Assembly (NCBI RefSeq): GCF_026965535.1
Contig: NZ_CP114039.1
Span: forward strand, 806,001-870,000
Direction: 5' to 3'
Length of the DNA stretch: 64,000 bases
Origin: Corallococcus sp. NCRR
GTDB lineage: Bacteria; Myxococcota; Myxococcia; Myxococcales; Myxococcaceae
Shown: one piece after another, positions 25,992 through 60,726 of the stretch
Layout of the letters: each line of letters opens with the position of its first letter
Numbering within the stretch: the first letter of the stretch is position 1
Position numbers and translations under genes: made by a program
Notes under the pieces: model-generated
The model's input: only the letters and a program-made list of their open reading frames with translations
Database searches by the model: none
What the model was told of the DNA's origin: nothing

Positions 25992-26137
25992 GCGGATCAC
26001 CCAGGCCGCCATCTTCGCAATCACCCTCACCCACTCCATCTCCGCCACCCTCCCCGCCCAAGCCTCGCCATCCAACCCGAGGGGTCTGACATGGACTCGA
26101 GGCTCCGGCGTCCTCGCCCTCCGGTGGCGAAGCGCGG

Positions 26138-26166
26138 AAACCTGTCCGACTGTCGGACAGGTTTTT
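26138..26166 (+). terminator. intrinsic terminator, same hairpin as the array at 57356-57879
   Basis: AAACCTGTCCGA and TCGGACAGGTTT form a 12-bp stem with a CTG loop and continue into TTTTT. It sits between convergent genes (ends at 25991 and 26211). It is near-identical to the hairpin that is repeated eight times at 57356-57879, which gives a clue to that element's origin. Confidence 0.85.
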
Positions 26167-26210
26167 GGCGGACGGCCGCCCGGAGGGTGCCGCTTGTCCG
26201 TGCATCCCGG

Positions 26211-55599: not shown

Positions 55600-57294
55600 T
55601 CAGAACAGGCGCGAGTACGTGGACGGAGCCCCGGGCCGTGGCGTCCAGCGCTTCGCATCACGGGGCAGCCACAGGAGCTGGAAGGCTTCGGCGCGCCCTT
55701 CATAGCGAAGGGTGTGCTCGCCCCGGGACAGCGTGAACTCAGGCGTGGTGATGCGCTCGCCATCGATGAACAGCGCACCGGCGTCGAGCGTGCTCGCGGG
55801 CTGGACGAAGTACCGGTCGGCGCGCACCGCGAGGAAGTGATCCTCCAGGGCGCCGGAGCCCGAGGGCACGCGGTAGCGCTGTCCCCACAGGAACAGGTCA
55901 CCGTCGTAGGGCTGGTAGTGCGCGTCGAGGAAGCGGCGCAGCGCCGGAGGAAGACCGGAGGTACGCAGGTCATCCACCCGCAGCACACAGCCCTGCTCCA
56001 CGAGCGCCCGGGGCATCTCGTCGGACAGCAGACCCACGAGCGAGCCGCGCAGATACGCGTCCGTGTAGAAGTAGAAGTGAGAGTGAGGGCGGCTCACATA
56101 GCCCCCCGAGTTGTCGTAGACGACATCCTCCGGTCCCGTGAGCGCGGCGATGCGAGCAAGCACCTCGCGCTGCCGGGCATTGCCGCCGCCGTCCAGCAAG
56201 GCCTCCACCCGCGCGGCCTGGACAACGAACAGGCCGCCCAGCCCGGCAAGCCCCAAGGTCCGCGCAGCGGGGGTGCGCAATCCAGAGAGCACGATGAGGA
56301 GGCCGCGAGCGGCGAGGGGCGCGAGCACGCCCAGAAAGGGCAACAGGCTGTACGGGAACGGAGCGCGCTGGAGCGCATAGGCGCCGAAGGTCGCGGGCAC
56401 GGCCACGACCAGGAGCAGGTCGGGGGTGCGAGGGTGCTTCCGCAAGCGAAGGAACGTGGCGACGAGCCCGACGGTAGCGAGGAGGAAGAACGCGGGTTGT
56501 GCTCCCATCGCCGGCACTAGGTATTCGCGCCAGGAGAAACCCGGATAGTGGCGCTGGTGTTCGGAAGCCCAGACGAAGCACCACCGCCACCATGCGCCCC
56601 ACGAGTCCGTCACCGTGAGGTAGGCGGCCACCGAGCCCGTCGCAACGGCGATGCCCATGAAGAAGGCGCGAGGCGCGGCGATGAGCGAGGGAGAAGCGTT
56701 CCTACGCGGCAGGAGGTCCACCAGGAGCACCGCGGCCACGAGTCCGCCAAAGAAGAGCGCTTTCTGGGAGCCCCACACGGAGGCAACGAGCAAAGCACCT
56801 GAGAGGAACGATGAACGGACGGAGCCGGGCTGCACGGACAGCGCAGCGAGTGCGCCCAGGAAGAGCGCGGCGGTGAGCGCATCCGGGCGCACCTCGGTGG
56901 CGAAGTGCAGGAAGCCAGGGGTGCAGAGCAGCAGCACTGGCGCCAGGAGCGCGGCGATGCGTCCTTCGCGCCGGTTGAGGAAGAACACGGAGACACACGT
57001 CCCCGCGAGCGGCACGAGCATCGCGGCCCGGAGCGCGAGCACGTTGCGCGGATCATCTCCCAGCAGCCGGAACAGAGGCGCCAGCAGTTGGTACACGAGA
57101 GGGAAGTGGACCTCGAAGAAGTCGCGGTAGGGCACCTGCCCGTGGGCCATGAGCCACGCGGCATGGGCGTACTGGAATTCGTCGATGCTGAATGCCTTGT
57201 GCAGTGCGAGGCGCGAGGCCTGGAGCGCGAGCACGCCCAGGACGACACCCAGCCCCCACCGCAAGGCCCGGGGCTCCGTCATCGGCGCCGTCAT
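55600..57294 (-). CDS. glycosyltransferase family 39-type membrane protein
   Basis: A 564-residue polytopic membrane glycosyltransferase of the PMT/ArnT (GT-C) type, which uses a lipid-linked sugar donor. The hallmark acidic pair is Asp38-Glu39 in AFSIDEFQYAHAAW, followed by GQVPYRDFFEVHFPLVYQ (residues 53-70), as in many bacterial family-39-like proteins. About ten hydrophobic helices run to residue 380 or so, and a soluble C-terminal domain of about 180 residues follows (VYDNSGGYVSRPHSHFYFY). No ribosome-binding site is obvious for the ATG at 57294, and the ATG at 57282 is an alternative. The upstream gap holds the eight-copy hairpin array. Confidence 0.85.
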   Translation of the reverse strand: MTAPMTEPRALRWGLGVVLGVLALQASRLALHKAFSIDEFQYAHAAWLMAHGQVPYRDFFEVHFPLVYQLLAPLFRLLGDDPRNVLALRAAMLVPLAGTCVSVFFLNRREGRIAALLAPVLLLCTPGFLHFATEVRPDALTAALFLGALAALSVQPGSVRSSFLSGALLVASVWGSQKALFFGGLVAAVLLVDLLPRRNASPSLIAAPRAFFMGIAVATGSVAAYLTVTDSWGAWWRWCFVWASEHQRHYPGFSWREYLVPAMGAQPAFFLLATVGLVATFLRLRKHPRTPDLLLVVAVPATFGAYALQRAPFPYSLLPFLGVLAPLAARGLLIVLSGLRTPAARTLGLAGLGGLFVVQAARVEALLDGGGNARQREVLARIAALTGPEDVVYDNSGGYVSRPHSHFYFYTDAYLRGSLVGLLSDEMPRALVEQGCVLRVDDLRTSGLPPALRRFLDAHYQPYDGDLFLWGQRYRVPSGSGALEDHFLAVRADRYFVQPASTLDAGALFIDGERITTPEFTLSRGEHTLRYEGRAEAFQLLWLPRDAKRWTPRPGAPSTYSRLF

Positions 57295-57355: not shown

Positions 57356-57879
57356 AAACCTGTCCGACTGTCGGACAAGTTCCCGCAGCCCAAGCCCAGG
57401 TGGACCAGTGGCCCCCGAACCGGGGCCCCAAAACTTGTCCGACTGTCGGACAAGTTCTCGCAGCCCAGGTGGACCAGTGGCCCCCGAGCCGGAGCCTCCA
57501 AACCTGTCCGACTGTCGGACAAGTTCCCGCAGCCCAGGTGGACCAGCAGCCCTGGCGCCGAGTTCCTCCCAACCGGTCCGACTGTTGGACAGGTTCTCCG
57601 CTGCCCGGGTGGACCAGCAGCCAACCCGAGCCGGGGCCTCCAAACCTGTCCGACTGTCGGACAAGTTCCCGCAGGCCAGGTGGACCAATGCTCCCCAAGC
57701 CGAGGTCCTCCCAACCGGTCCGACTGTCGAACAGGTTTTCCGCTGCCCGGGTGGGCCAGCATCCGACCCGAGCCGGGGCCTCCAAACGTGTCCGACTGTC
57801 GGACAAGTTCCCGCAGCCCAGGTGGACCAGCAGCCCTGGAGCCGAGGTCCTTCAAACGGGTGCGACTGTCGGACAGGTT
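57356..57879. repeat. array of eight 26-bp hairpins, period about 70 bp, higher-order period 142 bp
   Basis: Eight copies of a 26-bp element whose core is TGTCCGACTGTCGGACA (arms of 11-12 bp, CTG loop) start at 57356, 57431, 57500, 57570, 57642, 57712, 57784 and 57854. Two spacer types alternate from the third copy on: the A type ends AAGTTCCCGCAGCCCAGGTGG and the B type ends AGGTTCTCCGCTGCCCGGGTGG. Equivalent copies are exactly 142 bp apart (57500-57642-57784 and 57570-57712-57854), so a dimer has been amplified. The array fills the gap between the VWA gene (ending 57991) and the glycosyltransferase start. It is stop-free in several frames, but the unit lengths are not multiples of three. 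Confidence 0.9.
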
Positions 57880-57990: not shown

Positions 57991-60726
57991 TCAGCGCCCT
58001 GTACGACGCCGTGCCCTTGCCCGCGCGGCCTCCAGTGCGGAGTCCACACCCGCGGGCTTCGGAGGCTCCGGCTTCTGCTCGGCGGGTTCGCCCTGAACAG
58101 GCCGGGGCGCCGCGGAGGGCTTCACGTCCGTGCGCGGCGCTCCCGTGGGCTCACGTGCGCTGACTTCCTTCACGGGCTTTTCCCGCGCCGCCCGCACCCG
58201 CGGCGCGGAGAGGAACCTGCGCACCGCGACCTCCGCCAACATCGCCGCCAGCGCGACCGCGACCAGCCAGGGCGCCAACGCCACGCGGCCCTCCGACTCC
58301 GGCGCCTCCGCGAACAGGCCCGTCATCGACAGCCGCTCCTGCCCTCCGCCCACCGCCGCCAGCGCTCGCAGGAGCTTGAGACCCTCCTTCGCGCTGCCCG
58401 GCTCGAACTCCGGCGCGTATGGCAGCGCCACCGGTGGCGCCCTCAACACGCGTCCACCCCACTTCACCACCGGATGCCAGGTGCCGCTGCCCGTCAGCGG
58501 GTACTCGACCACCAACCTGTCCTCGTCCTCCCAGTGCAGCGGCTTCTCCACTCCCGAGCGCCCGTCGCCCGTCAGCAACACCGCCGTGGGCAACGCGCCC
58601 GGCATCGGCTCGCCCGGCGGCAGGTCCAACGTCACGCGCAGCAGGTTGCCCTGGCGCTCCGAACGCACCACCGCCTCCTCCTTCGGCGTCGGCCGCCCCA
58701 TCGACCAGCGCACCACCGACTCCAACGTCGCCCGCAGCGCGCCCCACTCGCGCAACTCACCCGTGTACCTGCCGTCCACCTCCGCCGTGAGCGCCACCGT
58801 GCGCCCCGCGCCATGCGGCCACAGCGCCAGCACCGGCGCGGCGTTCGTGTCCAACGTGCGCAGCGCCACGTTCGCCCGCGGCTTCAGGTAGGTGAGGTTG
58901 TAGCCGCCCACCTGCGGCAGGCCCGTCGTCGGCAGCGGCCCCAGCAGCGGCAGGTCCGGCGCGGCCTCCAGCGACGCGGGCTCGTCCACGAACGTGGCCC
59001 TCGCCACCGCGAGCGTCTCCTGGCTGAAGATGCGCGGCAGGCTCATGGCGTCCTCCGCGAAGTAGATGCGCCCGGCGCCCCGCCGGGCCACCTCGCGCAG
59101 CAGGTCCGCGTCCGGATCCGTGGGCTTGCCCAGGCCGATGACCGACACCGTCACGTTGGCCGCTCGCAGCGCCGCCAGCGTCTCCTGGTAGTCGCCCGGC
59201 TCCTCGGAGTCCGCCGCGTCGGAGAACAACACCACGTGCCGCGTGGGCTTTTCGCTGCGGAGGATCTCCTTGCTGCCCGCGCGCAGGGCCGTGCCCACGT
59301 AGATGCCGCCGCCTCCGCTGAAGCCTCGCGCCACCTGCTCGAACGGCAGGCCCTTGCTCACCGGACTCAACGGGAAGATTTCATGCGGCTCCGTGTCCAC
59401 CATGTGCACGGAGGCTTCGTCGTTCGCGTTGAGCAACGTGAGCGCCGCCGTGACGCCCTCCGCCGCCAGCTCCATCTTCGTGCGCCCGTCCGGCACCTGC
59501 ATGCCCATGGAGCAACTCGAATCCATGAGCACGCTCATCGCCACCGACGCGCGCCGCTGCTCCTCACGCATCTCCAGCGACACGGGCAGGAGCGGCTCCA
59601 GGGGCGAGCGCCGGTAGCCGCCCTCTCCGAAGCTCGACCGCCCTCCCGTCATCACCAGCCCGCCGCCCGCCTGGTCCACGTAGTCCGCCAGCGCGTTCAA
59701 CCCCGTCTCGCCCAGCGCGTTGGCGTCCACGTTCTCCAGCACCACCACGCCCACCCCGTCGAGCGCCTCCAGCGACAGGTGGAACGGCGCCCTCACCTCC
59801 AGCGCCATCCCCGTCGCCGCCAGCGCCTTCGCCAGTGTTCCCGAAGGCTGCGCGGTGAGCAGCATCACGCGCGGCGGCCCCTCCACGCGCAGCACGCCCA
59901 CGCCCACGTCGTTCTCCGGGACGCCGTCTCCGGGCACCTCCACCGTGAGCCGGTAATGCACCAGCCCCGGCTCCTCCAGCAGGTCGCGCAGGGGCAGCAG
60001 GTTGGGTCCGGGCTTGAAGTCGTACGCCCCCTTCACCAGCACCTTCCCGTCGCGCTCCAGACGCACGGTGCCGGTGACCGCCGAGGTCGCCTGCACCACG
60101 GCGGAGAACTGGAAGGGCTCGCGCACGGAGACCGTGGCGGGCACGTCCAACGACACCACGGCCACGTCCAGCGCGGGCTCCGGCCGGGACACCTGCCGGT
60201 AGTCCACCGCGATGCCCCGCGCCGCCAGCCGCCGCGTCGCGCCCCGCGCGTCCGCTCCCGTGGCCCGGCCGTCGGAGACCACCAGCACCCGGCCCGTGCG
60301 TTCGGGGGGAATGAGCGCGCCCGCCGCGTCCAGCGCGGCCGACAGGTCGGACGCCTCCGCGTCCACCGCCCGCGTGAAGCCACCGAACCGCCCGGACTCC
60401 GACAGCGGGGACTCCACCCGGGCCTCGCGGCCGAAGGTGATGACGCCCACGCGGTCTCCTGGCCGGCGCTGGGACTCCACCAGCGAGACGAGTTCCTGCG
60501 CCACGCGGTCCACGTCCAGCGGCATGGAGCGCGAACGATCCACCACCACGGCCACGTCGCTGCCCGCGTTCGCCAGCCGCAGCTCCGGCCCGGACAGCGC
60601 GCCCACTCCGAGCACCAGCAGCACCCACCGCAGCACCATGGGCGGACCGGGCCTCCGGCCGTAGCGCCACAGGAAGAGGCCCAGCGGCAACAGCAGCAAC
60701 CACGCCTGGGGAAGGGTGAAGGTCAT
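57991..60726 (-). CDS. double-VWA membrane protein of a Bat-like operon
   Basis: A 911-residue membrane protein with two von Willebrand A domains. The first MIDAS is at Asp63-x-Ser65-x-Ser67 (VVDRSRSMPLD); the second is at Asp402-x-Ser404-x-Ser406 (LMDSSCSMGMQ). Between them, at about residue 350, is a glutamine-amidotransferase-like segment (GGGLVMTGGRSSFGEGGY). Transmembrane helices lie at the N-terminus (LLLLPLGLFLW, VLRWVLLVLGVG) and near the C-terminus (LAPWLVAVALAAMLAEVAV), followed by a basic Pro-rich tail. It overlaps the BatA-like gene by 4 bases (ATGA). Such proteins act with a MoxR ATPase in cell-envelope or aerotolerance functions. Confidence 0.9.
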   Translation of the reverse strand: MTFTLPQAWLLLLPLGLFLWRYGRRPGPPMVLRWVLLVLGVGALSGPELRLANAGSDVAVVVDRSRSMPLDVDRVAQELVSLVESQRRPGDRVGVITFGREARVESPLSESGRFGGFTRAVDAEASDLSAALDAAGALIPPERTGRVLVVSDGRATGADARGATRRLAARGIAVDYRQVSRPEPALDVAVVSLDVPATVSVREPFQFSAVVQATSAVTGTVRLERDGKVLVKGAYDFKPGPNLLPLRDLLEEPGLVHYRLTVEVPGDGVPENDVGVGVLRVEGPPRVMLLTAQPSGTLAKALAATGMALEVRAPFHLSLEALDGVGVVVLENVDANALGETGLNALADYVDQAGGGLVMTGGRSSFGEGGYRRSPLEPLLPVSLEMREEQRRASVAMSVLMDSSCSMGMQVPDGRTKMELAAEGVTAALTLLNANDEASVHMVDTEPHEIFPLSPVSKGLPFEQVARGFSGGGGIYVGTALRAGSKEILRSEKPTRHVVLFSDAADSEEPGDYQETLAALRAANVTVSVIGLGKPTDPDADLLREVARRGAGRIYFAEDAMSLPRIFSQETLAVARATFVDEPASLEAAPDLPLLGPLPTTGLPQVGGYNLTYLKPRANVALRTLDTNAAPVLALWPHGAGRTVALTAEVDGRYTGELREWGALRATLESVVRWSMGRPTPKEEAVVRSERQGNLLRVTLDLPPGEPMPGALPTAVLLTGDGRSGVEKPLHWEDEDRLVVEYPLTGSGTWHPVVKWGGRVLRAPPVALPYAPEFEPGSAKEGLKLLRALAAVGGGQERLSMTGLFAEAPESEGRVALAPWLVAVALAAMLAEVAVRRFLSAPRVRAAREKPVKEVSAREPTGAPRTDVKPSAAPRPVQGEPAEQKPEPPKPAGVDSALEAARARARRRTGR

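What the first reader, a model, noticed from the sequence alone, without database searches (positions are those of the whole stretch)
57356..57879. Eight-copy hairpin array with a 142-bp higher-order period
A 26-bp hairpin core recurs eight times about 70 bp apart. Two spacer types alternate, and equivalent copies are exactly 142 bp apart, so a dimeric unit was amplified. The one isolated copy in the window (26138) has a T-run and functions plausibly as a terminator; the array copies lack one. The array may be a transcription-blocking wall between the Bat-like operon and the glycosyltransferase, a regulator-binding array, or a mobile REP-like repeat that expanded.
Basis: seen in the sequence. 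Interest (0 to 1): 0.6.

Follow-up and report, generated by a model that had tools for sequence, protein, structure and literature searches.

The report
Arrayed operator repeats tied to GntR
The eight repeats are one array of a repeat family found across Corallococcus genomes; each repeat looks more like a docking site for a many-copy gene-regulator protein than a simple hairpin, and its one asymmetric base tends to point the same way relative to DNA replication.

Summary
The array is real: eight 25-bp cores, 69-75 bp apart; the exact 142-bp period holds for the last six. It is one of 48 clusters (162 cores) found in this Corallococcus genome; the exact core occurs in 16 of 16 genus genomes and 4 of 80 other family genomes. 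The hairpin is not what is conserved: cores show no compensatory pairing, while two overlapping GTC-S-GAC boxes, the FadR-type GntR operator form, are nearly invariant. Cores stay about 90% identical while spacers average about 63%, in 15 of 15 arrays measured. The genome has eight copies of one GntR-family regulator; all eight have a core just upstream, as do 20 of 20 fetched copies in two congeners, and counts correlate across 16 genomes (rho 0.82). The asymmetric centre base faces one way relative to replication (39 v 4 clusters), not transcription; this repeats, more weakly, in three other species. No RAYT/Y1 gene was found in 16 genus genomes, so it is not a standard REP. The window's isolated copy is a ~0.2-kb insertion absent from 11 relatives. 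Best reading: dispersed, locally amplified operator-like repeats of a mobile GntR gene family. Binding and array function are inferred.

The parts
57357..57381 (+). core 1 (25 bp), centre base T on +
57432..57456 (+). core 2
57501..57525 (+). core 3
57571..57595 (+). core 4 (variant, 142 bp before core 6)
57643..57667 (+). core 5
57713..57737 (+). core 6 (variant; followed by TTTT)
57785..57809 (+). core 7
57855..57879 (+). core 8 (variant)
57357..57879 (.). whole array, about 70-bp units; copies 3-8 are three 142-bp dimers; lies between the stop of the VWA-domain gene 57991-60726(-) and the start of gene 55600-57294(-)
26139..26163 (+). isolated core
25992..26208 (-). about 0.2-kb insertion holding the isolated core: core plus leader and start region of the GntR gene, without the gene body; absent at this site in 11 relatives

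Best explanation
The array is a locally amplified member of a dispersed repeat family of Corallococcus. The family is tied to, and probably derives from, the upstream site of a multi-copy, mobile regulator gene of the GntR family (FadR fold). Each 25-bp core is a double operator: two overlapping GTC-S-GAC boxes, 8 bp apart, inside an outer dyad AACCTG...CAGGTT. Copies inserted mostly between genes, away from divergent promoters, and some were amplified in tandem with units of about 57-81 bp, as in this window. The GntR paralogs are proposed to bind the arrays as multi-dimer platforms, regulating their own genes at the gene-linked copies and being buffered or titrated by the rest. SHOWN: family, dispersal, constraint on the boxes, gene linkage, one insertion, replication polarity. 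INFERRED: protein binding, origin and route of mobility, effect of the arrays.
For: 60 exact cores in the genome, 0 in the reversed control; 16 of 16 genus genomes have it, 4 of 80 other family genomes. Of 163 cores 142 have both GTM-N-KAC boxes and 20 one; the GT/AC letters are 97-100% constant, stem pairs no better than shuffled, 1430 v 1436 +- 5.4. PMC4494728 (passages) gives GTM-N0-1-KAC as the FadR-subfamily consensus and reports extra half-sites 7-12 nt from site centres. Cores more conserved than spacers in 15 of 15 arrays measured. 8 of 8 GntR paralogs of this family in the genome, 12 of 12 in G018 and 8 of 8 fetched of 9 in G028 have a core at -107 to -146. GntR and core counts correlate over 16 genomes, rho 0.82. 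In 6 of the 14 paralog pairs listed for this genome the main homology block starts within about 10 bp of the proximal core. E. coli FadR and its DNA complex are fold matches 1 and 2; R45, T47 and R49 are invariant in 28 of 28 aligned members. Insertion absent from 11 relatives.
Against: No binding data. 13 of 44 intergenic clusters lie between convergent genes, where no promoter is expected, so many sites are not ordinary operators. G025 has 5 cores and G006 (another genus) 11 cores without a GntR match at 1e-10. The outer T/A of the TNGTNNNACNA consensus quoted in PMC2230225 is mostly C/G here. Clusters were found by similarity to the core, which inflates core identity somewhat. In 8 of the 14 listed paralog pairs the homology does not start at the proximal core. 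Counts over related species are not independent.
Confidence: 0.6

Rival explanations
1. A purely selfish palindromic repeat (REP/MITE-like). The core is an end or recognition hairpin of a transposable unit, moved as single strand on the lagging-strand template by an enzyme not yet recognised; GntR is a passenger gene; arrays are neutral expansions.
For: Mostly intergenic; arrays with many different periods, about 57-81 bp, which argue against helical phasing; replication polarity 39 v 4 clusters, reminiscent of lagging-strand single-strand transposition (recalled); an insertion with empty sites; GntR units in genome G037 with inverted ends, read by eye.
Against: No Y1/RAYT match in 16 of 16 genus genomes while 5 of 14 controls ring. 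No stem covariation. Cores held at 0.79-0.97 identity while spacers drift to 0.49-0.76, not expected for neutral copies.
Confidence: 0.25
2. Functional, fork-oriented sites (architecture or replication signal): arrays bound by a protein that reads polarity relative to replication, concentrated near the origin.
For: Centre base fixed relative to fork direction in 39 of 43 informative clusters of this genome, independent of transcription (A 13, T 10); 35 v 8 in G028, 37 v 13 in the listed part of G018, 22 v 8 in G022 contig C7. Against a simple mutational skew: T exceeds A in fork direction in 9 of 10 right-arm and 7 of 10 left-arm samples, while the core has A. 34 of 48 clusters lie in the origin-proximal half.
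Against: Copy number varies from 3 to 137 between congeners, odd for an essential signal; polarity reverses at 2.6-4.1 Mb in G018 without a matching GC-skew change; of the core letters only the centre base is strictly polar, with position 17 polar in part.
Confidence: 0.1
3. Bidirectional terminators or mRNA-stabilising hairpins at gene ends.
For: Enriched in convergent gaps (13 of 44 v 16 of 140 background) and depleted in divergent gaps (6 of 44 v 56 of 140); about half of cores have TTTT within 8 nt on some side (9 of 17 isolated, 71 of 146 in arrays).
Against: Stem pairing not conserved; a C-C mismatch at positions 9/17 occurs in 47 of 138 distinct locus-core pairs; arrays of up to 11 copies would be redundant; cores lie upstream of 28 of 28 GntR genes counted; 4 of 48 clusters overlap coding sequence.
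Confidence: 0.05

Closest known systems
REP/BIME/REPIN repeats with RAYT (GTAG and CGTC families, PMC3733652, passages read)
   Same: short palindromes, mostly intergenic, single or in tandem clusters, some families linked to a gene, some copies inside genes
   Different: no RAYT/Y1 match in the genus; linked gene is a multi-copy GntR regulator; no stem covariation; two protein-type boxes per core. The CGTC families of that paper also lack a dedicated transposase, so absence of one is not unique
GntR/FadR operators (GTM-N0-1-KAC, PMC4494728, passages read)
   Same: GTC-S-GAC boxes fit; extra half-sites at 7-12 nt are reported there; regulator gene adjacent
   Different: sites dispersed as 48 clusters with arrays of up to 11, often between convergent genes; eight paralogous regulators
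Mobile insertion cassettes / IS passenger genes (papers seen only as a search listing)
   Same: non-transposase gene dispersed in many copies; in G037 with inverted ends
   Different: no such inverted ends noticed around the Corallococcus copies; not searched systematically
BOX, ERIC, RMX (Myxococcus) repeats (recalled, no call)
   Same: modular palindromic interspersed repeats, some with variable tandem units
   Different: not compared; their sequences were not looked up

Membership tests
RAYT-mobilised REP | RAYT/Y1 transposase in the genome | tested here: not met
   PF01797 in 0 of 16 genus genomes, rings in 5 of 14 controls
RAYT-mobilised REP | conserved GTAG or CGTC tag next to the stem | not tested
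   flanks were printed but no systematic test was run
RAYT-mobilised REP | stem kept by pairing | tested here: not met
   1430 Watson-Crick pairs v 1436 +- 5.4 shuffled, 138 distinct locus-core pairs
GntR/FadR-type operator | GT-N3-AC (GTM-N-KAC) box | tested here: met
   both boxes in 142 of 163 cores, one in 20
GntR/FadR-type operator | outer T and A of TNGTNNNACNA | tested here: not met
   positions 4 and 22 are C and G in most of 163 cores; consensus quoted in PMC2230225
GntR/FadR-type operator | linked regulator gene of FadR fold | tested here: met
   28 of 28 fetched paralogs in three genomes have a core upstream; fold matches FadR and FadR-DNA
GntR/FadR-type operator | bound by the regulator | not testable with these tools
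   needs gel shift, DAP-seq or ChIP-seq
Intrinsic terminator | stable stem plus T-run in transcript direction | tested here: inconclusive
   TTTT on some side in 80 of 163 cores; 1 of 8 on the + strand in the window array; transcript direction not taken into account
Rfam RNA families | match above gathering score | tested here: not met
   0 matches in the window
CRISPR array | unrelated, unique spacers | tested here: not met
   spacers within an array are related, mean identity 0.49-0.76 in 15 arrays

The most novel reading that the evidence does not exclude
A regulator-operator pair that spreads as a unit: mobile GntR genes seed their operator around the chromosome, local amplification builds multi-operator arrays, and the sites are kept in one orientation relative to the replication fork, forming origin-centred nucleoprotein landmarks. 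This would be a repeat-plus-gene system built on a DNA-binding regulator instead of a transposase.
Probability: 0.2. Interest if true: 0.85.

Novelty: new variant of a known kind. Interest (0 to 1): 0.62.

Why it matters
Palindromic repeats in bacteria are commonly explained by hairpins and, for many families, RAYT transposases. Here the conserved feature is a pair of regulator-type boxes, the linked gene is a many-copy GntR regulator, and one base of the repeat tracks replication direction. If binding is confirmed, it offers a tractable case for how operator arrays arise and spread, and a test of why a repeat should be oriented with the replication fork.

Tried and rejected
Plasmid collection: no match to the array. 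Rfam: none. Y1/RAYT transposase: no match in 16 genus genomes. Stem covariation as support for a hairpin: absent. A core or palindrome beside the GntR genes of G037: no core upstream in 20 of 20 loci, one 10-bp palindrome upstream in 1 of 20 (L181) and one distant core-like match in L185; a conserved leader, an in-gene half-palindrome and inverted ends were then read by eye. Transposase-like peptide beside two G037 copies: no significant Pfam match. Literature: searches on Myxococcus repeats, Corallococcus repeats, Corallococcus GntR, myxobacterial REP, mobile cassettes, replication-strand bias and Corallococcus tandem repeats gave no listing that described this family; there only titles and starts of abstracts were seen. 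The RMX repeat paper is recalled; one search did not find it.

Limits and mended points. 58 of 60 exact cores lie in the 46 fetched regions. Clusters whose best core had more than 4 mismatches were dropped. Gene calls come from my own codon-usage script, not a standard gene finder; it missed four of the eight GntR genes, and repeats the context counts with them added (convergent 15 of 45 became 13 of 44, divergent 4 of 45 became 6 of 44, transcription-read centre base 13 v 11 became 13 v 10); the earlier figures are superseded. Two of the 48 clusters are core-like stretches inside GntR genes (L062 at 2416727, L088 at 8664368). Array identities cover 15 of the 17 clusters with four or more copies. 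G018 polarity uses the first 100 of 135 sites; G022 uses one contig; G028 lists 89 sites with T or A at the centre. GntR counts rest on at most 29 scored candidates per genome. In one search five loci (L148, L150, L152, L159, L167) were read on the wrong strand and enter no count. One search used a slightly different core consensus.

Full report
OBSERVATION. The window holds eight 25-bp cores at 57357-57879 and one isolated core at 26139. Nine places match the 17-mer with up to 3 mismatches against 0.20 expected. Spacings are 69-75 bp; the 142-bp period is exact for copies 3-8 only.

SETTING. The window is G000:C1:806001-870000 of a 9.79-Mb single-contig genome. Of the ten loci that encode a relative of the gene next to the array at 81-92% identity, nine are named Corallococcus and one is a Myxococcaceae MAG, so the genus is taken as Corallococcus; the strain itself is not named.

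FAMILY. The 17-mer with any centre base occurs 60 times in the genome and never in the reversed control. It is in 16 of 16 genus genomes at 3-137 copies, and in 4 of 80 other family genomes (1, 2, 11 and 2 copies). I fetched 46 regions, which hold 58 of the 60. With up to 5 mismatches they give 48 clusters and 162 cores: 16 single, 17 with four or more, up to 11. Arrays have their own periods, from about 57 to 81 bp. After adding four GntR genes that my gene caller had missed, 44 of 48 clusters are intergenic and 4 overlap coding sequence. Convergent gaps are enriched (13 of 44 v 16 of 140 background gaps, p 0.008) and divergent gaps depleted (6 of 44 v 56 of 140, p 0.001).

WHAT IS CONSERVED. 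Over 163 cores the letters G6 T7, A11 C12, G14 T15 and A19 C20 are 97-100% constant. Stem pairs do not covary (1430 Watson-Crick pairs v 1436 +- 5.4 in shuffles; 1781 of 2000 shuffles reach the observed value), and position 17 is C instead of G in 59, breaking a pair. Both boxes fit GTM-N-KAC in 142 and one in 20 of 163. That is the FadR-subfamily consensus given in PMC4494728, which also reports extra half-sites 7-12 nt from site centres (passages). PMC2230225 quotes TNGTNNNACNA (passage), whose outer letters are mostly not met. Core identity exceeds spacer identity in all 15 arrays measured (0.79-0.97 v 0.49-0.76). Detection needs a recognisable core, which biases this upward; but units decayed as far as the spacers would have escaped detection, and only 16 of 114 spacings are 110-150 bp.

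THE LINKED GENE. Flanks of several clusters led to a repeated gene. It encodes a GntR-family protein (PF00392, E 1e-12 and 6e-14 for two copies; FCD only below its cut-off). Its model (mean pLDDT 85.5) matches E. coli FadR and the FadR-DNA complex first (TM about 0.6), and R45, T47 and R49 are invariant in 28 of 28 aligned relatives. The genome has 8 copies. All 8, 12 of 12 in G018 and 8 of 8 fetched of 9 in G028 have a core at -107 to -146 from the query start. In 6 of the 14 paralog pairs listed for this genome the main homology block starts within about 10 bp of that core; in the others it starts further upstream. 15 of 28 copies also carry a core-like stretch (up to 7 mismatches) inside the reading frame near the 3' end, in frame 0 in 15 of 15, coding about NLSDCRTG. 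Numbers of GntR genes and cores correlate over 16 genomes (Spearman 0.82), without correction for relatedness. Four relatives in another genus carry changed upstream palindromes; two were found by the core search at 5 mismatches, two by eye. Against the link: G025 has 5 cores and G006 11 cores but no GntR match at 1e-10.

POLARITY. dnaA lies at 2.03 Mb, and the sampled GC skew changes sign near there and at about 7.0-7.5 Mb. The consensus core is symmetric except for its centre base, and position 17 in part. Read in fork direction the majority centre base is A in 39 clusters, T in 4, undecided in 5 (20 v 3 on the right arm, 19 v 1 on the left). Without GntR-adjacent clusters it is 33 v 3. Read along transcription there is no bias (13 v 10). 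In G028 it is 35 v 8; of 32 clusters within 2.5 Mb of the origin 28 fit, 3 tie and 1 is against. In G018 the first 100 of 135 sites give 37 v 13 with the arm boundary at half the genome; many misfits lie at 2.6-4.1 Mb, where sampled GC skew shows no flip. In G022 contig C7 it is 22 v 8. Clusters shared by descent make these genomes non-independent. Clusters lean to the origin-proximal half (34 of 48, p 0.006).

INSERTION. The isolated copy sits between two convergent genes. Of the 16 genus genomes, G016, G018, G022 and G028 have these genes abutting with apparently overlapping stop codons, and seven others (G021, G023-G027, G030) have gaps of 6-28 bp; G020 shares the insertion; G017 and G019 carry a different 456-470-bp insertion; in G029 the two sides are on different contigs. 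The inserted 0.2 kb matches the core and leader of the GntR gene up to about its start. So material of this family has inserted at a new site; how is not shown.

ARRAY HISTORY. In C. carmarthensis the gap between the VWA gene and the same downstream gene has three cores with other spacers; cores lie within 0.7 kb upstream of that gene in 5 of 9 named Corallococcus loci (L113-L116, L118) and not in the other 4 (in L113 and L114 the contig ends within 0.6 kb). Arrays therefore turn over.

MECHANISM. Shown: a dispersed, locally amplified repeat with constrained GT-N3-AC boxes, tied to a many-copy GntR gene, polar with replication. Inferred: the GntR proteins bind it. Most likely the gene-linked copies are operators and the arrays are binding platforms that buffer the regulators; neutral spread of the unit probably explains much of the copy number. 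Polarity is unexplained: insertion on the lagging-strand template or a fork-oriented function would both give it.

NOVELTY. I found no description in the eight searches listed under Tried and rejected, which cover only an open-access library. It resembles REP families in layout but fails the RAYT and stem tests, so I call it a new variant of the dispersed palindromic repeat.

Noticed in passing
Several lie in units with inverted ends, either CTAAGC.C.CGGACAT near stop codons of neighbouring genes or a second, AT-rich inverted end. They look like mobile cassettes without a recognised transposase.
   Followed up: partly
L254 and L255, same gap as window 25992-26208: Two species carry another 456-470-bp insertion with a small open frame between the same convergent genes, suggesting such junctions may be insertion hot spots.
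   Followed up: no
L198, L201 and 13 other GntR loci, about +957 to +1290: A core-like stretch inside the GntR reading frame, in the same frame in 15 of 15, found in 15 of 28 loci.
   Followed up: partly
L210-L220 (G006): Another genus carries 11 exact, single cores with GC-rich flanks that look inverted, but no GntR match at 1e-10.
   Followed up: partly
G018, 2.6-4.1 Mb: Core polarity is reversed over this stretch although sampled GC skew is not.
   Followed up: no
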